DNA from: Membranipora membranacea
Lineage: Eukaryota > Bryozoa > Gymnolaemata > Cheilostomatida > Membraniporidae
Direction of reading: 5' to 3'
Length of the DNA: 64,000 nt
Assembly: GCA_914767715.1 (NCBI GenBank)
Contig: OU612070.1
Span: 25,716,025 to 25,780,024 of the forward strand
Positions 23,982 to 55,172 of this stretch are shown piece by piece (within the stretch, counting starts at the first letter, position 1; every line of letters starts with the position of its first letter). A model generated the notes under the pieces. It was not told the DNA's origin, did no database searches, and saw nothing but the letters and a program-made list of their open reading frames with translations. Position numbers and translations under genes: made by a program.

Positions 23982-25120
23982 TTATTTATAGCAACAGCAG
24001 CATGTAGTCTGGCAGTTTCCTCCTGTCCATCCAACCTTTTCGCATGCTGTACCACAGTCGTTTGCTGCTCCAATCATTAGGACTGCTCTTCTGTCCAGTA
24101 CAACCAGCGCAGGCATCTGCAGATTCCCCTGAAAGAGATTTCAGAAGTTGAGACATGATACTGTTTATGGTTAATTGGATAACATTACTGTGTTGAGTGT
24201 CACCTAACCAGCAAGATAAGCTTTTTCTTAGGTGGCTATATAACATTATTTAACTGATATCAAGGATATCAAGTGGTGATTTACTCCAGATTTTTATTCA
24301 TCCTTATAATATAATGTTACATGTAGAGTTCAATGCTTAGTATATTTATATAGTGTCAGAGATGCCTCTTACGTAGTTTGCTTATATTTCTAAGTTCTTT
24401 AAAAGTATTGGCTGATTTTGGTGATTATCTCCTCCTGGCCAAACTTTGCAAAATTTAACATGTATATCTGTTTTATGAAAGTATGCCTGATGTGCGCTTA
24501 CAATTGGGCAATAGACCAGAGACCTTAGCCTTTGATATACTCTCTTTCTCCAAACAAAGCGTCTTCTATAACAAGCTTTCAATTCAATCAATGTATGAGG
24601 CACAATATTCCTATGTCCCAATGCAACAAGTACAATTAAAATCTGCTACTGGTAGCCTAATACTGTGATTACCAAAGATTATAAATTGTTAAAGATTACG
24701 GAACGACCACGGCAATAAATAGTCTGGAAGCTAGTATTGCAGTAATTGTGCAATATTTTCACATTTATAAAATTCAGAGCACTGGTGGGTCAAAATTATT
24801 TATAGTGTTAGGAAATGTCCTCCCTTCTCATCTATGAGCTATGAGGTATATATGTGCCCTAGTGCTGTTCCAATATAATAAGCAGCGCAGGCATCTGCAG
24901 ATTCCACTGAAAGAGATTTCGGATGGTGAACACATGATACTGTTGGGAAACTGTTTACAATCATCAAAAGGGTAATTATTTTATAATGTGTTTGCACACA
25001 TATGGTGAACGCTTGATACGGTGTTGAAAATGAACAGGGTATTTTTGTGATATGATGTGAAGTGAAGGCAAACATCACTTTCAGCTCCAAGAGATTATTT
25101 TGGTCAATGACAGACTAAAT
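23982..25120 (-). pseudogene. Cysteine-rich secreted peptide, pseudogene copy (locus 0)
   Basis: The mature exon is present at 24128-23982, after a normal TTTCAG acceptor, and starts ESADACAGC, then GQKSSPNDWSS. It then lacks 8 bp relative to the sister copies (near 24067), shifting the frame and losing the downstream cysteines. The intron, including the decoy exon at 24906-24839, is recognisable back to about 25120. There homology stops and an unrelated duplicated block begins. The signal-peptide exon, 5' UTR and TATA box are therefore missing. Two independent lesions make this a clear pseudogene. Confidence 0.85.
24839..24906 (-). other. Intronic decoy exon of locus 0
   Basis: A CTCTTTCAG acceptor is followed by a near-copy of the mature-exon start (VESADACA), then AYYIGTALGHIYTS and a stop. 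It is one of four homologous partial exons, one per peptide locus. Confidence 0.65.
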
Positions 25121-26089
25121 TTAAAAAAAAATACACCACAAACTTTTCTCTTCTCTTAAGCGTGAATTAAAGGCCACAAGTTGATTATGGTTTAGAAAAA
25201 AGTAAGCTTATGATTATTAATCAGAATCAATGTATTTTTACATCAAAATCAGGTGATCTATAGTTAGTGTTTACCAACACACCTATTAATGCCCTAAGCG
25301 CTCCCATCTATTAGTGTAAATTTCATAATAACGTGCTGCGTGGGGAAAAGACTGCTTTTTGAGAGAGATGTCCATTTATATTGTTAATACTATTTTCAAT
25401 CCTATCTTTTGCTTGCAAGGCAACTTCATCAGTTTTTTAGCTGAGTAAATGTTCCAGCAAACTTTTTCTCCTTCCGTAAACAAAGTACATCAATAAAGAT
25501 ACTCAGTATTGGACTCTATTATCATGTTATGAATTCAAACTTTGACTGCGCTGACACAGATCATACAATCATTTCTTCGATCAGAATCAAATTCTCCCTG
25601 CTTCATAACTATGATAACCGGATCACATGCTTTCCATTTTCACAAAAGTTCTTTTGCTGTCCAAAAGGAAGTGAGATTTTCATGCAAATTATACGCTTTA
25701 GTTTTAAATGTGTCACGTTTCGTCCCAATGTTAGCAAACTGCGTAAAATACCCTTCTGACATTATCAATCATTGTAAGTTTTTTTAATTTCAATTAAGAG
25801 GACACTGAATATTCTGCTCTGAGATAGATAAGATGAGCTAATTACAGTATAACTACATAAACTAATCTGGAAAAACTTGACAAACAAGGAACCAATGAGG
25901 ATAATAAACGACTAAATACTCATCCCAGAAAAAAAATCGCCATTAGAGACTACATTAGAAACTCTAATGCGTCATATCCATGAATGGCAAAAATATATAT
26001 TGATGAATTGTAAAATGATAATCTTTGAATAGTTTGACATAGGCCTAAATAGGGACACACATAACATGATATCCTCATTCAGAGTATGT

Positions 26090-26220
26090 CATACATCCTA
26101 GGGAACTAGAATGCATCCTAGATGCATATGGCCATAAATGACATCTTCAGCTTTGTGTGCAGCAAGCTGCCAAAACTTGATCTGACACTAGTTAGCCATT
26201 GGCAGCGACACTTTGATCAT
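26090..26220 (-). repeat. U2-headed SINE-like module, body only
   Basis: On the minus strand this reads GATCAAAGTGTCGCTGCCAA, then TTTTGGCAGCTTGCTGCACA, then ATCTAGGATGCATTCTAGTT. It matches the bodies at 32724, 58958 and 60748. The U2-like head is truncated here. Confidence 0.6.
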
Positions 26221-27184
26221 AATAAATGACATCTATTATTATTGAATCTGGTGCCAATTAACACTGAATATCCTAGTCCTTCTATAAATGATTTAATATA
26301 GAAACCTCAGTAAAGCCTTGCTGTTTGGGTTAAACCCCATTAATCTCTTTATTCACCAAAAAAATAAATAATAGCTGAGCTGAGGTACTGTCTCCTTGAT
26401 GATAGTATTAAGCAGGTGGAGGTGAATGCAGCAGTACAAGCTAGCAACAGGGACGAGTTGTGATTTCATCATTCAGGCTTGCCTCTGTAAACTATTATAA
26501 ACTTAGTGACAACGATGTGATGATGATGTATGCCATCAGTATCAACTGAATAATTAACCATTCATTTTGGCTAATTCAGAAATATTATTATATACTTACA
26601 GACTATTTGCATTAATTGCCTTTAATTGCCTTCAGTTGACAGTCATTAACTTATATTCTACCAGGATGTCTTGCCTTATATTCAGCACAAGACATGATAG
26701 GAGCAGGATATAAAATAGTGATTAAGTTTATAATAATATTTCTGAAAAAACCAAAATGAATGGATTATATTCCAACTCTTAAGATGTATGACAAGCCTTC
26801 CGTTGAATAATACAGATGGATCAACAAAAAAGAATAAACACAAAATTGTTTTCTGCACAGTTGTAGAAGATTATCTTTTCTATTTATTCAGTGTCAGGGC
26901 TTACACAAGAAATGAGCAGAAAGTGCAGCAAAGCATTAAAAAAAACAACTGTATGTTCAAACTATGAAGCAGTGCCAATTGTCCATTTGACATTCCTATT
27001 CACTTCAGATATAAGATAATGAAGAGACTGGATATGCCAAAGCTGAAACAGTGCCAATTTGCCACTTGAGACTCCCAGAGGCGGCAGAAGCAAATAATTT
27101 AAACTTGTTATTTAGCTTTGCTAATTCCCTTAAATCTTCCAAAGTAAGTCAATTTGTCACAGGTGTGTCACCAACACATGCCCT

Positions 27185-27215
<31 letters not shown>

Positions 27216-27216
27216 G
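27185..27216. repeat. (AATC)n microsatellite
   Basis: Seven to eight AATC units. Orthologous shorter tracts lie at about 41570-41592, 57886-57900 and 61088-61100 in the other copies of the foldback repeat, so the tract varies in length between copies. Confidence 0.9.
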
Positions 27217-27421
27217 GACCCCCTCTCCTCCAGGAGTAACAACAGGGCATTATTCACCACTCAGCAATTAGTATCACTGTAGCCATCTAAATGGCAGCAG
27301 AGTAACAAAATCATAATCACATATATGAAATAGAATGACTAATAAGCCCTTATTACATTTATCAAAGAGTTCATAATTATTTGTCAAATCTTCAGAAATT
27401 GTCTTATCCTAACCATCTCAG

Positions 27422-27578
27422 GGTGTATCGTTTCCCCGGGATACCTGATAGGCATATTATTGAAGATGTGAATACCAACACACATGTGTTTGTTGTGGCT
27501 GATCTCTTTGTATGCTCAAGAAAATGTATAAAGGGTGCTTGGTTGGGCCTTAAACCAAACTCATGGGATAGAGAAAAG
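27422..27578 (+). CDS. Exon-like ORF inside the foldback repeat, copy 1
   Basis: This is a 157-nt open segment bounded by a CCATCTCAG acceptor and a GAAAAG/GTAACC donor. It encodes a peptide starting VYRFPGIPDRHIIEDV, then NTNTHVFVVAD, CSRKCIKGAWLGLKPNSWD, and REK. The second copy (41799-41955) has identical length and splice sites and only a handful of residue changes. I do not recognise the domain. No partner exons were found nearby. It may be an exon captured from a host gene, or one exon of the element's own protein. Translation is unproven. Confidence 0.45.
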
Positions 27579-29420: not shown

Positions 29421-30504
29421 GGATGGATGGATGGATTTATTACTATCATAGACAAAAATTTGTCACGAAATACGTTGTTAATACTGACAAGAAAGAAAAA
29501 CATGGAAAAATCAGATCGCTGTTGTATAAAAAGTTTTTTAGAATAGTATATTATCAAGTGTATGTATGAGATGTCTTAAAAAGCTGTCTCTACCCCATGT
29601 ACCCCGATATTTAACGGTGCGGTAGCGACCTGAGGGGCATTTAATTAGAAAGTCATTGATAAAGTGCTCTTCATCGTGTATGTACCGTAGTCCAAGTGTC
29701 TTGATCTGGTTGGCCACCAGAGCATCTATATCGGGGTGCTCGATCCCTAACTTGGCGGCATCTTTAAATATTTTGCGTAAGCACTTCTTGTCGCTTGCAT
29801 GGATGCTTGTAAAAAGTATGGGGAGACAGTATGTGATGAGGGATACAATAAAACTCTTGAATAACATATGAGAAAGGGGCTTTGAGCTATAGTATACAAA
29901 ATTTTTCACAATATACATGCGTTGAGATGCAGTAGTCACTATGGAGTGCACATGATCATGATAGCGGAGTTTATCGTCAACAGTAACACCAAGGTATTTT
30001 ACTTTGTCACAAAAATCAACATCCGTGCCGTTAAGGATAAGAGTAGGGGTAATGGGCCTAACAAGCTGAGTAGAAAACATCATTTCTTGAGTCTTGGAGG
30101 CGTTTAACAATAGGTTTAAATCACAACATTGCTTTGAAATTCTACTAATCTCATCAAGATAGGCACTAAGATCTGATTGATTTGATATGCATCCAATTAT
30201 ACAGGTGTCTTCTGCGTATTTAATGACAGTTATATTGCTCAAGTCTGAGGTAATCCTATTGGTATATATTGAAAACAAAAGTGGAGATAAACAGCAACCC
30301 TGGGGAGTGCCAGTGTTGGTTATGATGGGTTTTGAGATATTGCCATCTACTATTGTTCTTTGGGTGCGATTCGTTAGGAAGCTGTATATCCATTCAGTGA
30401 CATTGGAGTCGAGATGTGATAGTTGCGAGATTAAGTCTGGAACATGTATTGTGTTGAATGCAGAAGAAAAGTCAAGGAACAGACACCTGGCATAATTTGA
30501 AGCT
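29421..30504 (-). pseudogene. Rex1/Babar-like non-LTR retrotransposon, 5'-truncated insertion
   Basis: On the minus strand a continuous frame runs from the left edge of the insertion (30504) to the stop at 29538. Motif A reads FLDFSSAFNT. Motif B reads GTPQGCCLSPLLFSIYTN. Motif C reads KYAEDTCIIG. The C-terminal signature is CPSGRYRTVK, then DSFLRHL. The canonical YADD is YAED here, so one catalytic Asp is replaced by Glu. The 3' end has (ATCC)n at 29421-29436. The endonuclease and upstream parts are missing. The insertion interrupts CTTATCT/ATCTCAGAGC, which is intact at five other places in the window. This is the youngest clear retroelement insertion here and shares a family with 16890-17338. 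Confidence 0.85.
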
Positions 30505-31319
30505 ATCTCAGAGCAGGATATTCAGTGTCCCCTTAAATTAAATTAAAAAACTTACAATGACATTAGTGGCAATATATCAATACTGGACAAAAATAAATCA
30601 TGTCAGAAGGGCCTTTTACGTAGTTTGCAAATATTTTAGACGAAACGTGACACATTTAAATCTAAAGCACTTAATTTGCACAAAAATAAATCTCACTTCC
30701 TTTTGGATAGTAAAAGAACTTTTGTGAAAATGGAAAGTATGTGATCCGGTTATCATAGTTATGAAGCAGGGAGAATTTGATTCGGATGAAGAAATGATCA
30801 GATGATCTGTGTCAGCGCAGTCAAAGTTTAAAATCCATCATAACTTGATAGTAGAGTTCAATACTGAGTATCTTTATCGACATACTTTGTTTACGGAACG
30901 AGAAAAAGTTTGCTGGTTCATTTACTCTGTTAAAAAACTGATGAAGTTGCCTTGCAAGCAAAAGAAAGGATTAAAAACAGTATTAATAATATAAATGGAT
31001 ATCTGTCTCACAAACCAGTCTTTTCCCTACGCAGCACTGTATTATGAAATTGACACTAACAAATGGGAGCGATTAGGGCATTAATAGGTGTGTTGGTCAA
31101 ACTATAGATTACATGATTTTGTTGTAAAAATATATCGATTCTGATGAATATTCATAAGCTTACTTTTTTCTACACCATAATCAACTTGTGACCTTTAATT
31201 CACGCTTAAGAGAAGAGAAAAGTATTTTGTTGACAAATACATCTCAATTTTTTTAGAAAAGAGGAAACTACCATGTATTATCAAAATAAAAAATTTGTGC
31301 AAATTAAAGTGCGATTGAT
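30505..31319 (+). repeat. Foldback repeat, copy 1, distal right arm (block E)
   Basis: Continues the arm cut by the retrotransposon: CAGAGCAGGATATTCAGTGT, then TGACATTAGTGGCAATATAT, then TTCCTTTTGGATAGTAAAAG. The inverted partner is 25121-25860. Direct copies lie at 42780-43200, 59350-59500 and 61465-61990. It is non-coding. Apparent ORFs such as 30809-30994 are not conserved in frame. Confidence 0.7.
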
Positions 31320-32720
31320 TGTGGTCTCACCAATATGTGAATAGTTTGTAGTCAGGAACCCTTTGGTCAAAAACTGTGTTGGAAATGGGTGACTTTAGTC
31401 CCTCATCTTGTAGCAATGTTATGTTTTTGTAATCCCTCCTCAAGCAGGATCAAAATTAATATTATGAACTTTGACAGTCAGGACACTGGTTATCTTGTTC
31501 TCACCACAACAAAATATCAAACGAATCAGTTTATAAGAATGATGAATGATCTGAACATAGAAAACTAAAGCTTTATGTTGATAGATGCTTTAAAATTTAT
31601 AGTGATAAATTATGAAATGATGAGAATTAAATAGCTTGATAAATCTAAATCTATAATCATTAGAGGAAGAGTCAAATTCTAGTAACAAGTGACAATAATT
31701 TGACTATCATCACTGGATACTTTCACTCAAGTTTAAAAAAATTGCTAAGTAAGTTCCCCGACTATACAAGTGGAAGTGGCAGTTCGGCCAAAATATAAGC
31801 AAAGTACGTCAAAGGCCCCATTGACATTATATAAATAAATACTCAGCATCGAACTCTAGATGTACCGTTTTATTATTTGGATAAATAAAAATCTGGTGCA
31901 AATCGAAACTTGATATCCTGGTCCTAGTGGTCCCTCAGTTGATTGATGTTATATTGCCACCAAAGTAAAGGCTTATCTTGCTGTTACGGTAAAACTTAAC
32001 CGCAGATATTATAGCACACCGTTAAGTAGAAACTTGCAAAAAGGTGAGGTCTAAAAGTGGCATAGCTCTTGGAACACAGGCGTTCTTGGTTGTCCCTGAC
32101 ACATAGTCAGAAAACCCCGACTGGTATTCTGGGATGTTGCAGGATAACCAATGACTGGAGGTATTCCACAATTTATGTTGAGCACACATACAAATGGTTT
32201 ACAGGCTATGACCACTAACTAGCTCACTTAACTTACCTAAACAAGGTAACTAACTCGCCTCTTATGGTATTCATATCGAGCTCATACAGATGGTTTATAG
32301 GCCATTTCTTTTCACCAGCTCAGTCTTTCTGACCTAACAAGGTCCCTTACTAATCACACACCAACCATTTGTATCCATTCAAAACAAAAGTACTAAATGA
32401 CAAACTCGGCATCTATCTCTCTTGTTTTTATCATTCACATCTAAGCCTTTTTGCACACTGATCTAAACGTTAGCATTGGGCTAAGTTCAAAAACCTTGTA
32501 ATTGCATTCAAATCCCTTGTGTCTACTAGCGGTCACAAGTAAAGATTTATAAAACTGTTTTGTATATCACATGTAAACAGGATATTCACCATATAAAATA
32601 ATGAATACATTAAATGTTTTTACTGTGCATTTAATAGCGATATATGGATACACAGTAACAATTGCCTAGAAACCACGGTCTTTTCAAGAATTAGTAAGAG
32701 TAATTGTACATTTATATATA
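31320..32720 (+). repeat. Duplicated block H, copy 1
   Basis: Direct copies lie at 43270-44690 and 62085-63490. Shared landmarks are GACAGTCAGGACACTGGT, GATAGATGCTTTAAAATTTA, GGCATAGCTCTTGGAACACA, ATCGAGCTCATACAGATGGT and CTAGCGGTCACAAGTAAAGA. The reading frames differ between copies, so I treat it as non-coding. Confidence 0.75.
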
Positions 32721-34639: not shown

Positions 34640-36500
34640 TACAGATCTTGTTAACATATGACTCTTTTATTACTTGGTGGTTTAACTTGTTTTGTCTTGT
34701 GACGACTACTACTTACACCCACTATCATATAGAATATATTGAATGTTACTATTATTGTTAATTGATTATTAAGTTATTGAAATCAATTGTTTAATTTATA
34801 TATTGTTTTATTAAATAAATTGAATAATTTATGAAATTTTCAATAACTTATTAAAATTATCAATAAAAATGTAAGGAATAAATAAATTATCAATATTTAA
34901 ACATATTAATATAAACTATATTAGTCATTTAGCAACTAATAGTGCATGTGACTATAATTTATGCTAAAAACTAATGAATAATGAGCCGATATCCAATGTG
35001 GCTGCCATTAACAGTTCATTGCTGGCGATTAAATGTTCATATAATGTCATTGAGTTAAATCTAGGGGTTGGTTTTTTATTTTTAAGTGTTATGGTAGAGA
35101 GCTAAACCACGCAAGCAAGATTGAGCCATATTGCAATTCTAAAATATAATAGGTTGGTAGCATTAATTAGCAACATCACTATAAACAACTCAGAACCTTA
35201 CACTCGCATCTTACAAGCTCACACCATGATATAATACATGCTAGGGTTTTGGTATTTGTTTAATTCTACAGAATATTCATTAGGCTTGTGATACTAATTT
35301 GCTTCTCTGAAAAAAAAGCCCAGAGGCTTTGTCAGCGATTGCAGTGTTGTAGAAGGGATTGCCCCTGTCAGCTTAATTTTCCAATTGATATTACTTTAAG
35401 ATGAATTAATCACAGAGTAAGGATATCAAGGGGATATTGTCCAGTGGGGGCAATGTTCGATCTGGATGCCTTCCAAATTTCAATAATTATATAAGTTACA
35501 AGGATGATTTGTGATGCAGACATACCCACCTGTGATAGGTCCTATTTGACTCTGTATTATCCTAAAGACTTATTTCCAAGTTTTGGAAAGGTCTAACTTA
35601 CAAGCTATACACCATAAAGTTATTGTCACTTTTTGCTGGGTTGCAAACGGATGAAAGAAAAGGATTTATGGTCGACAATTACCATTTTTATATGATGTTT
35701 CAGAGAAAGCTACTAAAAATATACTTCTTTAGGGATCTTAGGTATATGTTGTGGAACATTGTTGAAAAATAAATTGCACTCGAATTGCAGTGACTCTCCG
35801 AGCTATTCTTTTCTCCTAATCACCAACATGGGGACATGAACAGCTTACCACCAGCGCTTCACATTATGAGCAACCTGAGATATTTTGGCCATCAAGCCAA
35901 CTGTTTAGCAGCACCTATAAAAGCTTGATAGAAAGAAGCCTTCTTTACCAGTCAACAATCATATACCATCATTTGACAGATAGAGAATAATCCATTCTAC
36001 ATCAGAGAGCTGATGATAAACTCTGTCACCAACATCACCTATCCTAAAGGATACCAGAAATAATTCCTTCACTTACAAAGCAAATTTTTCAGCTTTTTAT
36101 TTTCGTAAATACTTTTATAATATTTATTGTATGCATTTTTTATCATTTCGGATCCAGTTGAAATCTGCTTTAATTATGCCTCTAAGTTTGTTTTTGTAAA
36201 AAATATATTCTTGAATTAGAGTTTAGTATACATGAAGTAGAATATAAATACAGCCAATATGTTGATACGACCCCCACAGAAATAACAGACAGACAAAATA
36301 AGCTTTATACAACAACATGCAATTAATATGTATAGCTTTGTTAATTTCCTGCTGAACCATTGAGCTTGCATGATATTCTAAGTGTGAGAACTGTTCATAG
36401 GGACTCATCAAATGGCCTCTTTATTAAAATTAATACACCATTCAATGTCCTGCTCCTATCTTGTCATGTATATGAATTTTGACATGCTAAACTTGGTCAG
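34640..36500 (+). repeat. Duplicated upstream block G of peptide gene 1
   Basis: Matches 45890-47600 in the same orientation: AACTCAGAACCTTACACTCG, GAAGGGATTGCCCCTGTCAG, TATGGTCGACAATTACCATT, GGGGACATGAACAGCT and TTGATACGACCCCCACAGAA. The last ~250 bp are also kept upstream of gene 3, inverted, at 55370-55610. I find no gene in it. The antisense frame at 36223-36411 reappears at 47345-47527 but diverges at its C terminus. Confidence 0.7.
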
Positions 36501-36509
36501 ACATCCTGG

Positions 36510-36640
36510 TACTATATTTTGACTAAATATAATTTTATGTACGTCAATGACGGTAGCGTATTGTGACATGCAGACATCCTCATGTCCCCTATAAAAACGA
36601 GAACCTAACAACATTAAGTCATTATTACTCTACAGAGCCC
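36510..36640 (+). promoter_or_regulatory. Core promoter of peptide gene 1 (TATA at 36590-36596)
   Basis: TATAAAA lies in GTCCCCTATAAAAACGAGAA. It is followed 20-50 nt later by a conserved GTCATTATTACTCTACAGAG block where transcription should begin. Genes 2 and 3 keep the same arrangement, as does the region about 80 bp upstream (TGACATGCAGACATC). The start site itself is inferred. Confidence 0.75.
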
Positions 36641-36721
36641 TCTACTCACACACAGTAGGTCATTTATATAATTACCAATTATAAATGCTGTTAGAACTTT
36701 TGCTCAGGAGAAATTTGACAC

Positions 36722-37036
36722 GTAATTTCCGAAACTGCTGTTGTTCCTGAAAGCGACATTCATCTAATTTTGGTTATCTTGTGCAATATAGTGAGATGTA
36801 GCTGATCTCCTTCAAATTCTTATCCAGCAACGTTTTGCTACTAGATGCAATCATTTTGAAATGGAGTATTGCAGTAACTCAGTTATTTTAGTTTTTTTTG
36901 AATCAAATTAACTCTTTGCATAAATTCTTTGAGCATAATGAGAAGACAAAGAAAAAGCACATTTATTATGTATTGAATAGTTCTAGGTTTTTTCCAGTTT
37001 ATAACAAGCTGAACATGGTTTATGTTACTTTTTTAG
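36722..37036 (+). other. Candidate 5'-UTR intron of peptide gene 1
   Basis: A GTAATT donor follows GACAC, and a TTACTTTTTTAG acceptor lies 19 nt before the start codon. Gene 2 has the equivalent at 47832-48142. Gene 3 lacks this segment entirely, and its UTR joins directly to the start codon. The junction in gene 3 does not correspond to clean splicing, so a genomic deletion is more likely than retro-processing. Confidence 0.4.
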
Positions 37037-37055
37037 GATATCAACTGGATAAATT

Positions 37056-38281
37056 ATGGCAAACCTTGCAAGACTTTTCTTCATCATGGTGATCGCAGCT
37101 GCGTTATTCTCAGTTGGTAAGTGCTATTCATGCTCACATTTAGTTGTTTCTATCACTCCATTTTTGGTTCAATAAGTCCAGTCGAAATTCAGCCATTAGA
37201 TGTTCAAAGTTATTTAATAATCTAAGATTTATTGGCATTGATTCATAAGAGAAGGCCTGTGCTGTATTTGGCGTTTTCAATTTAAAAATTTAGTTTGTGA
37301 TTGACTACAAATAATCTCTTGGAGCTGAAAGTGATGTTTGCTTTCACATCACATCACAAAAATACTCTGTTCATTTTCAACACCGTATCAAGTGTTCACC
37401 ATATGTGTGCAAAGACGCTATAAAAGAGTTACCCTTTTCATGATAGTAAGCCATTTCGCAACAGTATCATGTGTTCACCATCCGAAATCTCTTTCAGTGG
37501 AATCTGCAGATGCCTGCGCTGCTTATATGTTAGAACAGCACAAGGGCACATAAATACCTCGTAGCTCACAGATACGAAGGGAGGAAAATTCCTAACACTT
37601 TAAATACTTTTTCCCACAAGTGCTCTGAATTTTATGAATGTGAAAATATTGCATAATTAAGGCAGAACTAGCTTCCAGACTATTTATTGCCGTGATCCTT
37701 CCGTAGTCTTTAACAATTTATAACCTTTGGTAATCACAGTATTAGGCTACCAGTAGCAAATTGTAATTGTACATGTTGCATTGGGACATAGGATTATTGT
37801 GCCTCATACATCGAATGAATTGAAAGCTTCTTATAGAAGAGGCTTTGTTTAGACAAAGATAGTATATCAAAGGCTAAGGTCTCTCTGAAATTATATAAAT
37901 ATACTCAGCATTGAACCCTACATGTAACATTATATTATAAGGATGAATAAAAATCTTGAGTAAATCACCACTCGATATCCTGGTCCTAGTGGGCCCTCAG
38001 TTGAATGATGTTATATAGCCACCTAAGTAAAAGCTTATCTTGCTGGTTAGGTAACACTTAACACAGAAATGTCATCCAATTAACCATCAACAGTATCATC
38101 TGTTCACCTTCTGAAATCTCTTTCAGGGGAATCTGCAGATGCCTGCGCTGGGTGTAAAGGACAGAAGAGCAGTCCTAATGATTGGAGTAGTTGTTCAGCT
38201 AACGACTGCGGTACAGCATGCACAAAGGTTGGATGGACAGGAGGAAACTGCCAGACTACATGCTGCTGTTGCTATAAATAA
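37056..38281 (+). CDS. Secreted 10-cysteine, defensin-like peptide gene 1 (two exons)
   Basis: Exon 1 (37056-37116) encodes a signal peptide (MANLARLFFIMVIAAALFSV). Exon 2 (38127-38281) encodes the rest. The junction is phase 1 (GTTG/GTAAGT and TTTCAG/GGGAA), and the product is 71 residues. The mature part has 10 cysteines spaced C-x2-C-x12-C-x4-C-x3-C-x9-C-x3-CCCC, ending YK. C-x3-C, then GWTGGNC (a gamma-core-like GxC), then CxC match the CSalpha-beta fold of invertebrate defensins. The extra N-terminal C-x2-C and the CCCC run are unusual and allow five disulfides. There are few charged residues. A secreted defence peptide is the likely role. A venom-like or signalling peptide is an alternative. 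Gene 1 differs from its sisters at Lys after the second Cys and at Thr in ACTKVG. Confidence 0.85.
37498..37553 (+). other. Intronic decoy exon of gene 1
   Basis: After ATCTCTTTCAG the sequence repeats the mature-exon start (TGGAATCTGCAGATGCCTGC). It then diverges to AYMLEQHKGT and a stop at 37551-37553. Splicing exon 1 to it keeps phase and gives a short peptide with one cysteine. The upstream ~40 nt also duplicates the tract before the real exon 2. Confidence 0.7.
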
Positions 38282-38760
38282 TGTTAACAGAATATATGAT
38301 GAAAATCCAAACTAAATCTATGTTATTTAAATTGTTGATCTTTCAAATTTTGCATGGCATTAACTTTTCAATACCATGTTATTTGAGACGACCATTTATT
38401 TGCAACACTGATTTTCAGTATTATCAATTTTCCTGTTAATACATCATCTTGTTTCAACCGCAAAAAAGTACAGTCTCCTCCATTAATTCAGACTTAGTGA
38501 TTCACATACAGAATTCCGTGCCCTTAGTCCAAATGTCAACTTGTCCCCATGACATAGTAACTTGTAGATAAAAAGGTGAAAGCATCAGGGCTCTATCATT
38601 TACCTCAGTGTGAAGGAACTTAAATTACCTACGATAGGAGACTGTGTGAGTGTGCTGGTATGTGGCATCCTTATTAATTGCCAACTGCATTGTGGGTAAC
38701 TATTTTATTTAGAAGACGTAACCTATTAAAAATACTGACAATACAACGATTGAACAGGAC
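38282..38760 (+). repeat. 3' flank of peptide gene 1
   Basis: The 3' UTR and downstream DNA are shared with the other peptide loci. No consensus AATAAA signal is obvious close to the stop. Homology to 49791-50270 ends near 38760 (ACAGGACAGGACAAGC). Confidence 0.6.
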
Positions 38761-39540
38761 AGGACAAGCTTATACCTTGGATTTCCATTGTTGAGTATGT
38801 TGCCAACTGGTGAAGGTTCATTGCATCTTGATACGTATTTAGTGGTGCCATTGTTGTCTTCTACTTTAACCAACTCTAATAGTGATATTTTTTCTCGGAG
38901 CAGTCTATGCTGATTTTCCGAGTTAAGTTTGATATTCAGTAAAATGAAACATTGATTGATGGGTTATTGAAGACGATTTCCGTTGAAGATATTAGGGCAT
39001 TTAAATCCAATTGTTCTAGCCATTGTTTATTATTAAGATTTATTCTAACATTTCTTGCTAGTGGTTGAGCACAACTGCCAATATATGCAAATCAAAACCA
39101 CATACATGTGACGTAATTTTCAACGTTCAACTTACTTTTTTGTGTGCGGTATTACCTATGAACGGATCCCACATCCACATCAAATTTCGCTTTTGTTTTT
39201 TAAGACACAGAACTTAAAGGACAAGCACATCTTGCGCATTCCTATCTAACGTTGAATGCTGGTCCATAAATCATTTTGTTAAAGCAGCGAATAGTCTGTC
39301 CGTCGTTTCAATATCTCTGGTTTTCATGAAAAGATGGTCTGTCCATGCCGCCTTTGCTTCAAAAATATCCCCCTCAAAAGACTTATGATGAGTACCAAAG
39401 AATTTAATTAATTTAGCGGGGGACATATGTTAACTCATCTCTAAATCAGACACTCTAAATGATTGACTTCTACACCTCACAATCCGTACAGCAAATAATT
39501 ATTGAGCGTCATTTGTTCGTGATTCAATATATTTAACTGA
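38761..39540. other. Spacer, partly duplicated, no gene
   Basis: From about 39145 this is a direct copy of 52020-52440 (CCTATGAACGGATCCCACAT, then TTGCGCATTCCTATCTAACG). The first 380 bp seem single-copy. No coding signal. Confidence 0.5.
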
Positions 39541-43310: not shown

Positions 43311-44690
43311 GTGAATAATTTATAGTCAGGAATCCTTTGGTCAAAAACTTTGTTGAAAATTTCAGAGATAATTTTAGTAACTTATCTTGTAGCAGTGTTA
43401 TGCTTTTGTAATCCTCCTCAAACAGTATCAAAATTAAGATTATGAACTTTGACAGTCAGGACACTGGTCATCCTATTCTCACCACGAAAAATTGTCAAAC
43501 GAATCAGTTGATAAGAATGATGAATGGTCTGAATATAGAGAACTAAAGCTTCATCTTGATAGATGCTTTAAAATTTATAGTGATGAATCGTGAAATGATG
43601 AGAATTAAATAGCTTAAAAAATCTGAATCTATTATCATTAGAGGAAGAGTGAAACTCTGGTAACAGGTGGTCTTGATTTGACTATCATCACTGGAAAACT
43701 TTCATTCTACTTTCACAAAATTGATAAGGAATTTCCCCAACTATACAAGTGGCAGTGGCAGTTCGGCCGAAATATAAAAAAAGTACGTCAAAGGCCCCAT
43801 CGACATTATATAAATAAATACTCAGCATTAAACTCTAGATGTACCGTTTTATTATTAGGATGAATAAAAATCTGGTGCCAATCGCAACTTGATATCCTGG
43901 ATCTCTAGTCCCTCAGTTGAATGATGTTATATTGCCACCTAAGTAAAGGCTTATCTTGCTGTTTAGGTAACACTTAACCGCAGAAATGTTTCTAATCACA
44001 ATAATGATATCTAAACTCAGCTGCACAAAATTGGTAGCAGATATTATAGCACTCCGTTAAGTTGAAACTTGCAAAAGGTGAGGTCCAAAAAGTGGCATAG
44101 CTCTTGGGACACAGGCTTTCTTGGTTGTCCCTGACACATAGTCGGAAAACCCCGACTGGTGTTCTGGGATGTTGCAGGAAAACCAATGACTGGAGGTATT
44201 CCACAATTTATATTGAGCACACATACAAATGGTTTACAGGCCATGACCAATAACTAGCTCACTTAACTTGCCTAAACAAGGTAACTAACTCGCCTCTCAT
44301 GGTATTCATATCGAGCTCTTACAGATGGTTTATAGGCCATTTCTTTTCACCAGCTCAGTCCTTCTGACCTAACAAGGTCACTTACTAATTACACACCAAC
44401 AATTTGTATCCATTCAAAACAAATGTTCTGAATGACAAACTCGGCATCTATCTCTCTGGATTTGATAATTCACATCTAAACCTTTTTGCACACTGATCTA
44501 AACGGTTACATAGGGCTAAGTTGAAAAAACCTTGTTTTTGCATTCCATTACGAGTCACAATAGCAGACACATGAGTTGTCTCTCTTGTGTCTACTAGCGG
44601 TCACAAGTAAAGATTCACAAAACTGTCCTGTCTATCACATGTAAACAGGATATTCACCATACAAAATAATAAATACATTTTTAATTTTTA
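43270..44690 (+). repeat. Duplicated block H, copy 2
   Basis: A direct copy of 31320-32640 and 62085-63440. Two overlapping antisense frames (43992-44250) recur at 62713-63046 but are broken in the copy at 32 kb. I regard them as conserved by recent duplication, not by selection. Confidence 0.75.
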
Positions 44691-45349: not shown

Positions 45350-45890
45350 AATCACTCAATTCAAACACCTGGGTTACTTCGCACAGGGCTGTGCAAGCTT
45401 CAGCGGCCCAGCGTGGCACAGCGGTTGGGGTGTTTGATCTCAGATCGAGTTCAAGCAAGGAAGGATCATGAGGAGGATCCCTTATTTTTATATAGTATAT
45501 ATTAATATATCACAACCATAACATGTTTGTTGGGCTATATTTCATAGCTTTTTTCACTGAAAATAATTGTGGCGGAGTTCAGCCACATTATAGGACAACG
45601 ATACTATCTCAGGCTACCTCATAAGTGGTAGGGAAAGGACTGCCTTTCTAATTTGCACTTAAAATGACATTGACATAACTCAATCGACAACCTGAGTTTA
45701 ATAATATGTAATAAATAGCATTCTGATAATAGACAGCGTTCCATATCATGGAGCGTTGTCTATTATCAGAAGATTCTAAGGCATGATAAACATCATCTTA
45801 ACAACCTTATAAATGAATGTAAATAACATTCAATGCTTTTTATTACATATTATTGAATTAACAAATTTATATTAGTCATTTTTATTTTGA
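45350..45890. mobile_element. Insertion specific to unit 2: tRNA-like SINE plus nested MITE
   Basis: Unit 1 passes directly from CACCCACTATCATATAG to AATATATTGAATG at 34720, so this ~540 bp is extra. Positions about 45396-45470 have a pol III A box (TGGCACAGCGG) and a B-box-like GAGTTCAAGC. Positions 45700-45722 pair with 45832-45854 (AATAATATGTAATAAATAGC and its mirror). Inside lies a second hairpin, 45722-45770. I could not define exact ends or a target-site duplication. Confidence 0.55.
45722..45770. repeat. 49-nt hairpin
   Basis: TCTGATAATAGACAGCGTTC-CAT pairs with ATG-GAGCGTTGTCTATTATC-AGA, a 23-bp stem with two mismatches and a 3-nt loop. It sits inside a larger inverted repeat. Confidence 0.75.
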
Positions 45891-47600
45891 ATATATTGAA
45901 TATTATTATTATTATTAATTGATTATTAAATTATTGAAAGCAATTGTTTAATTTATAATTTGTTTCATTAAATAAATTGAATAATTTAAGAAGTTTTTAA
46001 TTACTTATAAAAAATTATCAATGAAAATGTAATGAATAAATAAATTATCAGCATATTAAACATATTAATATAAACTATATTAGTCATTTATCAACTAATA
46101 GTGCATGTGACTATAATTTATGCTAAAAAATAATGATTAATGAGCCAATATCCGATATGGCTGCCATAAACAGTTCATTGCTGGCGATTAATTGTTCATA
46201 TCATGTCATGGAGTTAATTCTTGGGTTTGGGTTATTTATTTTTAAATATCTTCTTTTAAGTGTTTTGGTAGAGAGCTAATGCACTGCCATTCCAGAATAT
46301 ACTAGGTTGGTAGCATTAATCAGCAACATCACTATAAACAACTCAGAACCTTACACTCGCATCTTACAAGCTCACACCATGATATAATACATGCTAGGGT
46401 TTTGGTAGTGGCTCAATTCTACAAAATATTCATTAGGTTTGTGACACTAGTTTGCTTCTCTGAAAAATAGCCCAGATGCTTTGTCAGCGATTGCAAAGTT
46501 GTAGAAGGGATTGCCCCTGTCAGCTTAATTTTCCAATTGATATTATTTTTAGATGACTTAATCACAGAGTAAGGATATCAAGAGGATTTTGTTCAGTGGA
46601 GACAATGTTCGATCTGGATGCCTTCCAAGTGTCAATATATATAAGTTACAAGGATGATTTGTGATGCAGACACACCCACCTGTAATAGGTCCTTTTTGAT
46701 TCTATATTATTCTTAAGACTGATTTCCAAGTTTTTGGAAAGGTCCAACTTTCAAGCTATACACCATAATATAATTGTCATTTATTGCTGGGTTGCAAACG
46801 GATGAAAGAAAAGGATTTATGGTCGACATCACCATTTTCGTATGGTGTTTCAGAGGAAGCTATCAAAGTATACTTCTTTAGGGATCTTAGGTATATGTTG
46901 TGGAAAACTGTTGAAAAATAAATTGCTCTCAAATAGCAGTGACTCTCCGAGCTATCCTTTTCTCCTAAACACCAACATGGGGACATGAACAGCTCACCAC
47001 CAACACTTCACATTATGAGCAACCTGAGATAGTTGGGCCATCACGCCAACTGTTTAGCAGCACCAATAAAAGCTTGATAGGAAGAAGCATTCTTTACCAG
47101 TCAACCATCATATACCATCATTTGACAGATAGAGAATTATCCCTTCTACATCAAATAGCTGAAACTCTGTCACCAAAATCACCTAACCTAAAGGATACCA
47201 GGATACCAGTTTTTGATTTTTGTAAATATTTTTATAGTAGTTGGTGTATGCATTTTTTTATCATTTCGGATCCGAGTTGAAATCTGCTATAATTATGCCT
47301 CTAAGTTTGTTTTTGTATAAAATATATTCTTGAATTGGAGTTCATTATATACAGTATATATATAGTATACAGTCAATATGTTGATACGACCCCCGCAGAA
47401 AAAACAGACAGACAAAATAAGCTTTACACAACAACATGCAATTAATTGGTATGGCTCTGTCCATTTCCTGCTGAACCATTGAGCTTGCACGATATTCTAA
47501 GAGTGAGAACTGTTCATAGGGACTCATCAGATGGACTCTTTATTAAATTTAATACACCATGTAATGTCCTGCCCCTATCTTGTCATGAATCTGAATTTTG
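45890..47600 (+). repeat. Duplicated upstream block G of peptide gene 2
   Basis: The direct counterpart of 34740-36500, with small indels. No gene seen. Confidence 0.7.
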
Positions 47601-47619
47601 ACATTCTAAAATTGGTTAG

Positions 47620-47750
47620 ACATCCTGGTACTATATTTTGACTAAATATAATTGTGGCAGTGGCATATTGTGACCTGCAGACATCTTCATGTCCCCTATA
47701 AAAGCGAGAACCGAACAACACTAAGTCATTCTTACTCTACAGAGCCCTCT
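47620..47750 (+). promoter_or_regulatory. Core promoter of peptide gene 2 (TATA at 47697-47703)
   Basis: TATAAAAG lies in GTCCCCTATAAAAGCGAGAA, followed by CACTAAGTCATTCTTACTCT as in gene 3. It is nearly identical to the promoter of gene 1. Confidence 0.75.
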
Positions 47751-48161
47751 ACTCACACACAGTAGGTCATTTACATAATTACCAAACAATTATAAATGCT
47801 GCTAGAACTTTTGCTTAGGAGAACTTTGACATGTAATTTCCGAAACTGCTGTTACTGAAAGCGACATTCATCTAGATATGGTAATCATGTGCAATATAAT
47901 GAGATGCAGCTGATCTCCTTCAGATTGTTATTCAGCACGGGTTGGTTATTATGTGCAATCATTTTGAAATGGACTGTTGCAGTAACTCAGTTTTTTTTAG
48001 TTTTTTTGGAATCAAATCAACTCTTTGCATATTCTTTAAGCATAATGAGAAGACAAAGAAAAAGCACGTTTGTTACGTATTGAATAGTTCTAGGTTTTTC
48101 CTGCTAATAACTAGCTGAACATGTTTTATGTTACTTTACTAGGATATCAACTGGATAAATT

Positions 48162-49790
48162 ATGACAAACCTTGCAAGACTTTTCTTCATCATGGTGATT
48201 GCAGCTGCGCTATTCTCAGTTGGTAAGTAATATTCTTGCTCACATTTATTTGTTTCTATCACTCCATTTTTGGTTCAATCAGTCCAGTCGAAATTCAGCC
48301 ATCTGATGTTCAAAGTTTTTTGGTAATCTAAGATTTATTGGTATTGATTCATAAGAGAACGCCTGTGCTGTATATGGCCTTTTAAGTTTAAAAATTTAAT
48401 TTGTCATTGACCACAAATAATCTCTTAGAGCTGAAAGTGATGTTTGCCCTCACATCACATCACAAAAAATACTCTGTTCATTTTCAACACCGTATCAAGT
48501 GTTCACCATATGTGTGCAAAGACATTATAAAATAATTACCCTTTTGATGATAGTAAGCAGTTTCGCAACAGTATCATATGTTCACCATCCGAAATCTCTT
48601 TCAGTGGAATCTGCAGATGCCTGCGCTGCTTATTATGTTATAACAGCACTAGGGCACATAAATACCTCATAGCTCTTAGATAAGAAGGGAGGACAATTCC
48701 TAACACTATAAATAATTTTTCCCACAAGTGCTCTGAATTTTATAAATGTGAAAATATTGCATAATTACTGCAGAACTAGCTTCCAGACTATTTATTGCCA
48801 TGGTCCTTACATAGTCTTTAACAATTTATAATCTTTGTTAATCACTGTATTAGCAGATTATAGTTGTACTTGTTGCGTTGGGACATAGGACAATTGTGCC
48901 TTATACATCAATTGAATTGAAAGGTTGCTATAGAAGAGGCTTTGTTTAGACAAAGAGAGAATATCAAAGGCTAAGGTCTCTGGTCTATTGCGCAATCGTA
49001 AGCACACATCAGGCATACTTTCAAAAAACAGATATACCTGTTGCATTTTGCTTGCATACAACTTACAATGATGCAAAAATCGGCATATCTGGACAGCCCT
49101 ATTCTGGATAACCAAAAAAAATTTGGAAGTTATCAGACTATTGGAAGTAGCTGTGCCATACATTACTTTGTTAGTAACGGCTGTTTTTTGTAGATTTTAT
49201 CGAGAGATAATAATTTTTTCAAATATTGTTGTGGCTCATTGGGTTTACATTGGTATAATCCATAATTATATTTGGGTTAATATCACCCATGATAAATACA
49301 CTTCCCTAGAGTGAAGTTCATAGTCAGGAAGAGATAATCACCAAAATCAGCCAATACATTTAATGAACTGAGAAATATAAGCAAACTACATAGGAGGCAT
49401 CTCTGAAGTTATATAAATATACTCAGAATTGAATTCTACATGTAACATTATATTATAAGGATGAATAAAAATCTGGAATAAATCATCACTTGATATCCTA
49501 GGCCTAGTGGGCCCTCAGTTAAATAATGTTATATAGCCACCTAAGTAAAAGCTTATCTTGCTGGTTAGGTAACACTTAACACAGAAATGTCATCCAATTA
49601 ACCACCAACAGTATCATGTGTTTCACCTCTTTCAGGGGAATCTGCCGATGCATGTGCTGGTTGTACAGGACAGAAGAGCAGTCCTAATGATTGGAGTAGT
49701 TGTTCAGCAAACGACTGCGGTACAGCATGCAAAAAGGTTGGATGGACAGGAGGAAACTGCCAGATTACATGCTGCTGTTGCTATAAATAA
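48162..49790 (+). CDS. Secreted 10-cysteine, defensin-like peptide gene 2 (two exons)
   Basis: Exon 1 is 48162-48222 and exon 2 is 49636-49790. Sizes, phase and splice sites (GTTG/GTAAGT, CTCTTTCAG/GGG) match gene 1. The product has 71 residues. The signal peptide starts MTNLARLFF. The mature peptide keeps all ten cysteines and the GWTGGNC core. It has Thr after the second Cys, a Lys pair before VGW, and Ile in NCQITC. The intron is 1,413 nt, about 400 nt longer than in the sisters. Part of the excess is sequence also kept at the two minus-strand loci, and the rest (about 49030-49330) is unique. The gene is intact in every feature I can check. Confidence 0.85.
48605..48672 (+). other. Intronic decoy exon of gene 2
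   Basis: A TCTTTCAG acceptor is followed by VESADACAAYY, then VITALGHINTS and a stop at 48670. It is the longest-reading plus-strand version and very close to the pseudogene copy at 24839-24906. Confidence 0.7.
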
Positions 49791-50610
49791 TGTTAATGCA
49801 ATGAATGATAAAAATCTAAACTAAATCTATGTTATTTAAATTGTTGATCTTTCAAATTTTGTATGGCATTCACTTTTCAATACCATGTTATTTGAGACAA
49901 CCATTTATTTGCAATATTGATTTACAGTATTATCAATTTTCCTGTTAATACATCATCTTGTTTCAACCACAAAAATATACAGTGTCCTCCATTAATTCAG
50001 ACTTAGTGATTCAGATACAGAATTCCGAGCCCTTTGTCCAAATCTCAACTTGTCCTCATGACATATTAACTTGTAGATAAATAGGTGAAAGCATCAGGGC
50101 TCTATCATTTACCTCAGTGTGAAGGAACATAAATTGCCCACGAAAGATGTCTGCGTGAGTGTGCTGGTATGTGGCGTCCTTATTACTTGCCAACTGACTT
50201 GTGGGTAGTTATTTTATTTAGAAGACGTAACCTACAAAAAAAACTGACAATGTAACGATATAACAGGACAAGACATAATATGTGGTATGCAAAGAAGCTT
50301 AACATGAATTTAAATTGTCATTAGAACTACAAACAAGACAAAAAAAAAACAATAAACAAAGTACAGACGAATTATAAAATGAATTTAAGCTCTAACAATT
50401 ATTGATAGGAGAGGACATTGAATTAACTAGCTGTTGTTGCGAAAATAACTCATAACAGTTTGCTACATATTAGGAGCGCATCAGAATAAACTTATTCATT
50501 AAAAAAATTACACTTACATGATGTAGGGTTCTTAAACATTTCTAGGAGCGAGTTGAAAACATGATACACATTAATAATTTTTCTGGCGGCCAGAGATATA
50601 CCTGTCCAAT
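49791..50610 (+). repeat. 3' flank of gene 2, left arm of a large inverted repeat
   Basis: The reverse complement of 53020-53926. Homology ends at CTGGCGGCCAGAGATATACC (about 50583-50602), which mirrors GGTATTTCTCTGGCCGCCAG at 53024. With the genes themselves, the two arms (about 47.6-50.6 and 53.0-55.6 kb) make an inverted pair around a ~2.4-kb spacer. Confidence 0.8.
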
Positions 50611-52020: not shown

Positions 52021-53040
52021 TACGGTGTGCGATACTACCTATGAACAGATTCCACATCCGCATCAAATTTCGCTATGTTTTTATGACACAGAACTTAAAG
52101 GACAAGCATATCTTGCGCATTCCTATCTAACGCTGAATGCTGGTCCATAAATCATTTTGTTGAAGTTGATTCCCTCATGAAGAAGCGAATAGTCTGTCCA
52201 TCGTTTCAATATCTCTGGTTTTCATGCAAAGATGGTTTGTCCATGCCGCTTTTGCTTCAAAAATATTCCCCTAAGAAGACTTATGATGAGTTCCAAACAA
52301 TTTTATTATTTTAGCAGGGATATGTGTTAGCTCATCTCTAAATCAGACGCTCTAAACGATTGAATTCTAGACCTCCGTACAGCAAATAATTATTGAGCGT
52401 CATTTTTTCGTGATTCAATATATTTAACCGAGCCATAGGTTTGATGTTTCAAAGGACTTACTTTCAATATATGTTGATTGACATAAACCTGAGTCACACA
52501 TATAACATAAACTTATTTATAATTAATTATATCGCTACTATCACGTTCCTGCCAGTCATGTTTCAATTACCTTCAATACTCTAATGGAGGGATGTCGGAA
52601 GTGCTACAATCAAAACTAAAATATATCGGCCAAGGCAAGTGAGTAAGTTTGTACGACTGGCTCTGCTAGATTGTCAATCTTCAGAGTACATATCTTGATT
52701 TGTGTTGGAATTCAATCTTACTGCAGCCCACTGACTCTCAGGGTTTGTTTGGCTCTCACTGTTTTGGGATGGACATTTTCATTTATGAATACTTTTTTTT
52801 ATGCAAGAAGAAATTTAAAAGACCAGTTAATTAAGGTTATTAGCATTGATTATTGAATGTCTCCATTGTAAACAATAATTTTGGTATAAACATTGCTATA
52901 GCAGCCATCTATCTCTGTGCTGTTTGCGCTTTCCTATTGTTCCAAGTTAAATAGCTATGACTACGACTCATTTGTTTTAACCATCAGCCAGCATTGTTAC
53001 ACGCGGCAGCTCAGCAAGAGGAAGGTATTTCTCTGGCCGC
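52020..53040 (+). repeat. Duplicated block C, copy 3, with upstream extension
   Basis: 52020-52440 matches 39145-39540, and 52440-53040 matches 22436-23110 and 39541-40240. It leads directly into the 3' flank of the minus-strand gene, as at 22-24 kb. Confidence 0.75.
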
Positions 53041-53926
53041 CAGAAAATTAATTAATGTGTATCGTGTTTTCAACTCGCTTCAAGAAATGTTATAAAACCT
53101 ACACCATGTAAGTCTAATTTTTTTAATGAATAAGTTTATTCTGATGCGCTTCTTATATGTAGAAAACTGTTTGTGGAGATTTCTATCCATTGCTATGGCT
53201 GTAACTTAATTTTGAGCGCATATTACTATGTCAATTGTTCCATATTCATTATTATAATATGAGCAAACATTATATAAGACTATATATACCCTTTTTAGCG
53301 GTGTTAATTATTAGCTTGGAGGAGTTATGTTTGCAACAACAGCTGGTCAATTCAACGTCCTCTCCTATCAATAATTGTTAGAGCTTAAATTCATTTTGTA
53401 ATTCGTGTGTACTTTGTTTATTGTTTTTTTTTGTCTTGTTTGTAATTCTGAAGAGGATTTAATTTTATGTTTTGCTTCTTTGCATACAACATGTTAATTC
53501 ATTTTGTTTTGTCCCGTTACATCGTTGCATTGTCAGTATTTTTTTATAGGTTACGTCTTCTAAATGAATTAATTACTCGCAAGTCTGTTGGCAATTAACA
53601 AGGCAATTTGAGTTCCTTCACACTGAGGTAAATCATAGAGCCCTGATGCTTTCACCTTTTTATCTACAAGTTAATATGTCATGAGGACGAGTTTTGATTT
53701 GGACAAAGGGCTCGGCATTCTGTATCTGAATCACTAAGTTTGACTAAATTGAGGACACTGTATTTTTTGTGGTTGAAACAAGATGATGTATTAACAGGAA
53801 AAATGATAATACTGAACATCAATATTGCAAATAAATGTTTGTCTCAAATAACACGGTATTGAAAAGTTAATGCCATACAAAATTTGAAAGGTCTAATTTG
53901 GATTTTTATCATTCATTGTATTAACA
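53020..53926 (-). repeat. 3' flank of gene 3, right arm of the large inverted repeat
   Basis: The reverse complement of 49791-50610 and the direct counterpart of 23111-23981. Non-coding. Confidence 0.75.
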
Positions 53927-55172
53927 TTATTTATAGCAACAGCAGCATGTAGTCTGGCAGTTTCCTCCTGTCCAACCGACCTTTTTGCATGCTGTACCGC
54001 AGTCGTTTGCTGAACAACTACTCCAATCATTAGGACTGCTCTTCTGTCCAGAACAACCAGCGCAGGCATCTGCAGATTCCCCTGAAAGAGTTTTCAGAAG
54101 ATGAACACATGATATTGTTGATGGTTAATTGGATAACATTCCTGTGTTAAGTGTTACCTAACCAGCAAGATAAGCTCTTACTTAGGTGACTATATAACAT
54201 TATTTAACTGAGGGCCAACTAGGCCTAGGATATCAAGTGGTGGTTTGATCCAGATTTTTATTCATCCTTATAATATAATGTTGCATGTAGAGTTCAATGC
54301 TGAGTATACTTGTATATTGTCAGAGAGGCCTCCTACGTAGTTTGCTTATATTTCTCAGTTCATTAAAAGTGTTGGCTGATTTTGGCGACTGTCTCCTCCT
54401 GACCAAACTTTGCAAAATTTAACACGTATATCTTTTTTTTTGAAAGTATGCCTGATGTGCGCTTACGATTGCGCAATAGACCAGAAATCTTAGCCTTTGA
54501 TATTTCCTCTTTGTCTAAACAAAGCCTCCTCTATAACAAGCTTTCAATTCAATCGATGTATGAGGAACAATAATCCTATGTCCCAATGTAAAAAGTACAA
54601 TTATAATCTGCTACTGGTAGCCTAATACCGTGATTACCAAAGATTATAAATTGTTCAAGACTACGGAAGGACCACGGCAATAAACAGTCTGGAAGCTAGT
54701 TTTGTAGTAATTATGCAATATTTTCACATTTATAAAATTCAGAGCACTGATGGGTGAAAATTATTTATAGTGTTAGGAATTGTCCTCCCTTCTCATCTAT
54801 TAGCTATGAGGTATTTATGTGCCCTAGTGATGTTCAAACATAATAAGCAGCGCAGGCATCTGCAGATTACACTGAAAGAGATTTCGGATGGTGAACACAC
54901 GATACCGTTGCGAAACTGCTTACTATCATGAAAAGGGAAATTCTTTTACAATGTCTTTGCACACATGTGGTGAACACTCTTATGAATCAATGCCAATAAA
55001 TCTTAGATTATCAAAAAACTTTGAACATCTGATGGCTGAATTTCGACTGGACTGATTGAACCAAAAATGGAGTGATAGAAACAAATAAATGTGATCAAGA
55101 ATAGTACTTACCAACTGAGAATAACGCAGCTGCGATCCCCATGATGAAGAAAAGTCTTGCAAGGTTTGCCAT
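53927..55172 (-). CDS. Secreted 10-cysteine, defensin-like peptide gene 3 (two exons)
   Basis: Exon 1 is 55172-55112 and exon 2 is 54081-53927, with the same phase and splice signals as genes 1 and 2. The product has 71 residues. The signal peptide has Gly in place of Val (FFIMGIAAALFSV). All ten cysteines and GWTGGNC are kept. The residue after the second Cys is Ser. Across the four loci that site reads Lys, Thr, Ser and Thr, making it the most variable mature position. The intron is 1,030 nt. Its UTR lacks the ~330-nt segment present in genes 1 and 2. It is intact and probably functional. Confidence 0.85.
54810..54871 (-). other. Intronic decoy exon of gene 3, decayed
   Basis: The acceptor and the CTGCAGATGCCTGCGCTGCT core are kept. 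GGAATC has become GTAATC, so an in-frame TAA follows immediately after the splice site. Confidence 0.65.

What the first reader, a model, noticed from the sequence alone, without database searches (positions are those of the whole stretch)
23982..55172. A multigene family of 10-cysteine secreted peptides that resembles no common defensin exactly
Three intact genes and one pseudogene encode a signal peptide plus a 50-residue mature region. Its cysteine framework is C-x2-C-x12-C-x4-C-x3-C-x9-C-x3-CCCC. The core C-x3-C ... GWTGGNC ... CxC fits CSalpha-beta invertebrate defensins. The added C-x2-C pair and the run of four cysteines would make a five-disulfide variant I do not recognise. The variable residue after the second Cys (Lys/Thr/Ser/Thr) hints at diversification.
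Basis: partly seen in the sequence, partly recalled or inferred. Interest (0 to 1): 0.8.

Follow-up and report, generated by a model that had tools for sequence, protein, structure and literature searches.

The report
New ten-cysteine defensin-like peptide genes
Three near-identical animal genes and one broken copy encode a small secreted peptide that looks like a defensin core with two extra cysteine pairs, probably a defence peptide with an undescribed cysteine pattern.

Summary
Three intact two-exon genes (37056-38281 +, 48162-49790 +, 53927-55172 -) and one pseudogene (23982-24128 -) encode a 71-aa precursor whose 50-residue mature part carries exactly C-x2-C-x12-C-x4-C-x3-C-x9-C-x3-CCCC. 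The frame is under purifying selection (10 synonymous, 6 non-synonymous changes; 3.7 synonymous expected; P=0.0007), so 'diversification' is not supported. The last 32 residues fit the published invertebrate CSalpha-beta pattern apart from its His. Folded alone they model as alpha-beta-beta (pLDDT 81.6), nearest to short scorpion toxins and defensins; the whole mature peptide gave no confident model. Layout (phase-1 intron in the signal peptide, unsplit mature exon) is that reported for mollusc and arthropod defensin genes. The absent cysteine between array positions C4 and C6 excludes macins and eight-cysteine mollusc/nematode defensins; the CCCC end, N-terminal C-x2-C and near-zero charge also depart from them. 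Best reading: a new cysteine variant of the CSalpha-beta superfamily, a secreted defence effector whose core has three canonical disulfides and whose N-terminal pair is stapled to the two outward cysteines of CCCC. Core fold likely; staple and function inferred. Species, transcripts and relatives were not found.

The parts
37056..37116 (+). gene B exon 1 (signal peptide, 20 codons + 1 nt), donor GTAAGT
38127..38281 (+). gene B exon 2 (end of signal peptide, whole mature peptide, stop)
48162..48222 (+). gene C exon 1
49636..49790 (+). gene C exon 2
55112..55172 (-). gene D exon 1
53927..54081 (-). gene D exon 2
23982..24128 (-). pseudogene A: exon 2 only, 8-nt gap and frameshift; exon 1 not found
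48563..48642 (+). relic of the start of exon 2 inside the intron of gene C; also B 37456-37532 (+), D 54837-54913 (-), and upstream of pseudogene A at 24872-24948 (-); broken in B and D, a short frame with a single Cys in A and C
34732..38766 (+). duplicated block with gene B, matching 45889-50275 with gene C at 88-91%
52541..54975 (+). duplicated block with exon 2 and most of the intron of gene D, matching 22611-25010 with pseudogene A at 89%

Best explanation
A small tandem/inverted cluster of genes for a secreted CSalpha-beta host-defence effector of an invertebrate animal. A 61-nt exon encodes most of a signal peptide; a phase-1 intron is removed; exon 2 gives a 50-residue, near-neutral mature peptide, probably cut before Glu22 (my reading of the leader; no predictor was run). 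Residues 43-71 fold as helix-strand-strand with the three canonical disulfides Cys43-Cys62, Cys48-Cys67 and Cys52-Cys69 (array positions C2-C6, C3-C8, C4-C9). The other two cysteines of CCCC (66 and 68) face the other side of the last strand and would staple the N-terminal C27-x2-C30 segment across it, giving a five-disulfide variant of the fold. Being uncharged overall, it would act by binding a defined target (cell-wall precursor, surface glycan or channel) rather than by electrostatic membrane lysis. SHOWN here: gene models, frame, selection, cysteine pattern, gene layout, charge. PREDICTED: core fold. INFERRED: animal source, splicing in vivo, disulfide map, staple, defence role, target binding.
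Confidence: 0.6

Rival explanations
1. Same CSalpha-beta fold but a channel-acting secretion (venom, skin or predation peptide), since the nearest solved structures are short scorpion potassium-channel toxins.
For: Closest sequence and structure hits are scorpion toxins, notably BmBKTx1 with identical core spacing; the peptide is not cationic.
Against: The potassium-toxin signature K-C4-X-N (PMC5004176, passages) is absent: the peptide has N-C-Q-T/I at that Cys; the same paper calls the signature important but not essential. Purifying rather than diversifying selection. Solved structures are rich in scorpion toxins (general knowledge), so they tend to head a CSalpha-beta list. Tarr 2016 notes that fold and cysteine pattern do not separate toxin from antimicrobial.
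Confidence: 0.15
2. A secreted cysteine-rich metal binder or redox peptide: CxxC plus CCCC chelate zinc, copper or cadmium.
For: 20% cysteine, C-x2-C and CCCC, near-zero charge; a defensin-like protein of rice chelates cadmium (PMC5811569, abstract).
Against: A signal peptide sends it through the oxidising secretory route (general knowledge); core spacing and modelled core fit disulfides.
Confidence: 0.1
3. A cysteine-rich secreted peptide with a different, non-CSalpha-beta fold; the resemblance is coincidence of spacing.
For: No Pfam match, E-values of 0.018 and above, poor full-length model.
Against: The pattern match is rare in shuffles; 23 of 23 hits summed over the three exact copies are named CSalpha-beta proteins while four controls gave one hit in all.
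Confidence: 0.1
4. Not a working gene family: duplicated open frames without expression.
For: No transcript seen; one of four copies is broken; gene D lacks about 331 nt just upstream of its ATG that B and C share.
Against: Excess of synonymous change (P=0.0007); conserved splice sites, stop and all ten cysteines.
Confidence: 0.05

Closest known systems
Invertebrate (mollusc/arthropod-type) CSalpha-beta defensins
   Same: Signal peptide with a phase-1 intron, unsplit mature exon, C...CxxxC...GXC...CXC core, modelled alpha-beta-beta core.
   Different: Ten cysteines instead of six (or eight), an N-terminal C-x2-C, CCCC instead of CXC, near-zero net charge, no His in CX2HC.
Mytilins of Perna mussels (CCC motif)
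   Same: Extra Cys filling the CXC of the last strand; some are near neutral (PMC7168163).
   Different: Perna mytilins have mature peptides of 33-37 aa, a C-terminal extension and usually nine Cys; here there is no extension, four consecutive Cys and two N-terminal Cys.
Short-chain scorpion toxin BmBKTx1 (alpha-KTx 19.1)
   Same: Identical core spacing C-x4-C-x3-C-x9-C-x4-C-x1-C and C-terminal Tyr-Lys; top structure match to the core model.
   Different: Six cysteines, no N-terminal extension; the K-C-X-N signature is absent in the present peptide.
Ten-cysteine macins (theromacin)
   Same: Ten cysteines on a CSalpha-beta core.
   Different: Theromacin uses array bonds C1-C7 and C5-C10; here there is no Cys between C4 and C6, hence no C5.

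Membership tests
CSalpha-beta superfamily | Framework C...CxxxC...C...CxC with GXC gamma-core | tested here: met
   Cys43, 48, 52, 62, 67, 69 with G60-N61-C62; pattern and shuffles
CSalpha-beta superfamily | Helix-strand-strand fold | tested here: inconclusive
   Seen in the 32-residue core alone, not in the 50-residue model
CSalpha-beta superfamily | Disulfides C2-C6, C3-C8, C4-C9 | not testable with these tools
   No experimental data; register inferred
Six-cysteine invertebrate defensin | Exactly six cysteines, CX2HC | tested here: not met
   Ten cysteines; C-GTA-C lacks His
Six-cysteine invertebrate defensin | Two exons, phase-1 intron in signal peptide, mature exon unsplit | tested here: met
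   (gene models; no transcript)
Mollusc/nematode eight-cysteine defensins, mytilins, myticins | Cysteine C5 between C4 and C6 of the array | tested here: not met
   The nine residues between Cys52 and Cys62 hold no Cys
Macins | C1-C7 bond; in ten-Cys theromacin also C5-C10 | tested here: not met
   No C5; no Pfam match of any kind. The C1-C7 bond itself cannot be tested
Drosomycin / plant defensins | C1 and a C10 beyond the CxC | tested here: not met
   In the register that meets the spacing only Tyr-Lys follows C9. A shifted register (C66=C8, C68=C9, C69=C10) leaves 3 residues after C6, under the 4-9 of the pattern
Scorpion alpha-KTx | K-C4-X-N toxin signature | tested here: not met
   N-C-Q-T/I at Cys62

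The most novel reading that the evidence does not exclude
A previously undescribed subgroup of the CSalpha-beta superfamily in which a run of four cysteines in the last strand uses alternate residues for two jobs: 67 and 69 close the canonical core, 66 and 68 bind an N-terminal C-x2-C arm folded over the outer face. It would be a five-disulfide, uncharged effector with a new disulfide topology and a target-specific mode of action.
Probability: 0.4. Interest if true: 0.5.

Novelty: new variant of a known kind. Interest (0 to 1): 0.38.

Why it matters
CSalpha-beta peptides are a very widespread scaffold of invertebrate defence and venom peptides. A member with four consecutive cysteines, an added N-terminal pair and no net charge would extend the published ten-position cysteine array, would test whether outward-facing strand cysteines are stapled or make dimers (the open question raised for Perna mytilins in PMC7168163), and would be a probably very stable uncharged scaffold. 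It remains a variation on a well-known theme until structure and activity are measured.

Tried and rejected
Diversifying selection: rejected. Macin, mollusc/nematode defensin, drosomycin and alpha-KTx membership: rejected on cysteine positions or signature. Blocks 31791-32000, 43806-43989 and 62568-62789, which resemble the sequence just upstream of exon 2, were read for hidden paralogues: they do not encode the peptide. The relic of exon 2 was considered as an alternative exon: rejected as a source of the peptide, since it has a stop in D, a frameshift in B, and in A and C a short frame with one Cys. No other Cys-dense frame in the window, at 6 or more Cys per 45 aa, resembles the family. Relatives elsewhere: none in the protein collection (no candidate sharing three 5-residue words), viral contigs, bacterial and archaeal contigs or plasmids; these collections are mainly microbial, so this says little about animals. 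Species: not identified; the receptor-like ORF was searched as a lead and gave three unnamed relatives. Literature: not found under the searches (peptide strings in full text); open-licence papers only, and each listing showed at most 20 of the papers it counted. Copies of the family elsewhere in the genome could not be counted. Tarr's alignment of all superfamily sequences is a supplement that I could not read, so a listed member with this array cannot be ruled out.
Full report
WHAT IS THERE. A six-frame scan finds the framework C-x2-C-x12-C-x4-C-x3-C-x9-C-x3-CCCC open in three places and broken in one. Upstream of each intact copy lies a signal-peptide-like exon ending in a GTAAGT donor. Joined at the CTCTTTCAG acceptor in phase 1, they give three 71-residue precursors, the second and third 94% and 96% identical to the first, with all ten cysteines invariant. 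Introns are 1010, 1413 and 1030 nt (coordinates; the lengths printed for B and D used a wrong acceptor and are superseded). The fourth copy, 23982-24128 on the minus strand, has an 8-nt gap in exon 2 that shifts the frame; none of the three exon 1 queries matches beside it.

IS IT MORE THAN CHANCE? Cysteine density alone is not: 1 of 20 first-order Markov windows also held a 10-Cys stretch of 45 aa without a stop. Selection is the stronger test. Against their majority sequence the three coding regions differ by 10 synonymous and 6 non-synonymous changes; a neutral simulation expects 3.7 synonymous changes and reaches 10 in 0.07% of 20,000 runs. Pairwise dN is 0.024-0.027 and dS 0.11-0.21. Exon 2 differs by 5.2% in each of the three pairs of intact copies, introns by 8.3-9.4%. 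Non-synonymous codons are two in the signal peptide (residues 2, 12) and three in the mature part (31, 53, 64).

HOW THE CLUSTER AROSE. Self-comparison shows duplicated blocks, mostly about 85-94% identical: B and C lie in direct copies (34732-38766 with 45889-50275), A and D in another direct pair (22611-25010 with 52541-54975), the two pairs inverted to each other. Upstream of exon 2 all four copies carry a relic of the start of exon 2, inside the intron in B, C and D, so an internal duplication came before the gene duplications. Gene D lacks about 331 nt (equivalent to 47827-48157) immediately upstream of its ATG, so its regulation may differ.

WHAT FOLD. Pfam gives nothing at E<=10 for any of eight query forms, exact mature peptides included. 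Against sequences of solved structures the exact mature peptides of D, B and C give 9, 7 and 7 hits at E<=10, best E 0.042, 0.018 and 0.093. All 23 go by names of CSalpha-beta proteins (assignment by name, from general knowledge): scorpion potassium-channel toxins, gamma-thionins, a plant defensin, an engineered insect defensin, and 2ru0, labelled arthropod defensin in these calls and actinomycesin. A first search with a mixed 52-residue query gave the same nine chains as D. The three-sequence profile gives eight hits, seven of them CSalpha-beta and one an unrelated lipoprotein. Controls from D: reversed, none; three shuffles that keep every cysteine in place, none, none and one, the one being nasonin-1 at E 1.7, itself on this fold by its structural rank. 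So cysteine spacing alone does not explain the hits, though it contributes, and none is significant by itself. The published pattern for invertebrate CSalpha-beta defensins, CX4-15CX2HCX6-9GX1CX4-9CX1C (PMC6435467, passages), is met from Cys43 to Cys69 except for His; shuffles meet the no-His form in 0.05-0.5%, depending on the null. With Cys66 and Cys68 in place of 67 and 69 the last loop would be 3, below the 4-9 of the pattern.

GENE LAYOUT. The scorpion defensin paper states that mollusc and arthropod defensin genes share an unsplit mature exon flanked by a phase-I intron, which in its four genes lies within the signal peptide. The present gene models have exactly that.

WHERE IT DEPARTS FROM KNOWN SUBGROUPS. 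In the ten-position reference array (Tarr 2016, PMC5116183; passages and the whole cysteine-pattern section) the core is C2-C6, C3-C8, C4-C9. Mollusc and nematode eight-cysteine forms add C5 and C10, drosomycin and plant defensins C1-C10, macins C1-C7 (theromacin also C5-C10). Here no cysteine lies between C4 and C6, so C5 is missing, while two cysteines lie N-terminal of C2 and two extra ones sit beside C8 and C9. None of these named classes fits. The nearest precedent for the C-terminus is the CCC motif in 13 of 15 Perna mytilins, where the middle Cys is predicted to point outward and some peptides are near neutral (PMC7168163, sections 2.2 and 2.5); those peptides have a C-terminal extension.

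MECHANISM. In a strand, neighbours face opposite sides. If 67 and 69 close the core, 66 and 68 face out and are free for the N-terminal C27-x2-C30. This predicts five disulfides within one chain or, failing that, dimers. Net charge is about zero (4 Lys, 4 Asp/Glu), which argues against simple electrostatic membrane lysis; an anionic CSalpha-beta defensin active mainly on Gram-positive bacteria is known (AfusinC, PMC6181372, abstract). A channel-blocking role is disfavoured by the absence of the K-C-X-N signature (PMC5004176, passages), though that paper calls the signature important but not essential. A metal role is possible (rice CAL1, PMC5811569, abstract) but fits a secreted, probably oxidised peptide less well.

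LIMITS. The species is unknown: the window reads as animal DNA to me (introns, reverse-transcriptase remnants, a receptor-like frame), no tool named it, and the genome search did not complete (11 tries). No transcript was seen. The protein and contig collections used are mainly microbial, so 'no relative found' is weak evidence of rarity. Absence from print rests on nine searches of open-licence papers, of which only listings were seen apart from the papers cited, and not on the supplementary alignment of Tarr 2016.

VERDICT. Very probably real genes, under constraint, encoding a CSalpha-beta-type peptide with a ten-cysteine arrangement that I found described nowhere: a new variant of a known kind, moderately interesting, with a clear laboratory test.

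Noticed in passing
window 10491-11477 (+): Intact single-exon 328-aa seven-helix receptor-like frame; Pfam Srbc 25 bits against a cut-off of 22; three unnamed relatives at 47-50% identity, of which one of the two scanned hits 7tm_1 below its cut-off; no solved-structure sequence hit at E<=0.01.
   Followed up: partly
window 29541-30521 (-) and 690-1034 (+): Reverse-transcriptase remnants (RVT_1, E 2.6e-22, and 3.1e-05 with a score below the cut-off), LINE-like by eye.
   Followed up: partly
window 5930-7226: A 1.3-kb sequence that is its own inverted repeat at 82.6%, possibly a foldback DNA element.
   Followed up: no
window 14408-15024 and 17339-17877: Two minisatellite arrays with a unit of about 20 nt, inverted relative to each other, about 75-81% alike.
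   Followed up: no
window 47827-48157 versus 55172-55177: Gene D lacks about 331 nt directly upstream of its ATG that genes B and C share, so its promoter or 5' leader may differ.
   Followed up: partly
window 31791-32000, 43806-43989, 62568-62789: Three further blocks resemble the sequence just before exon 2 (about 80-83%) but continue into other repeated sequence and do not encode the peptide.
   Followed up: yes
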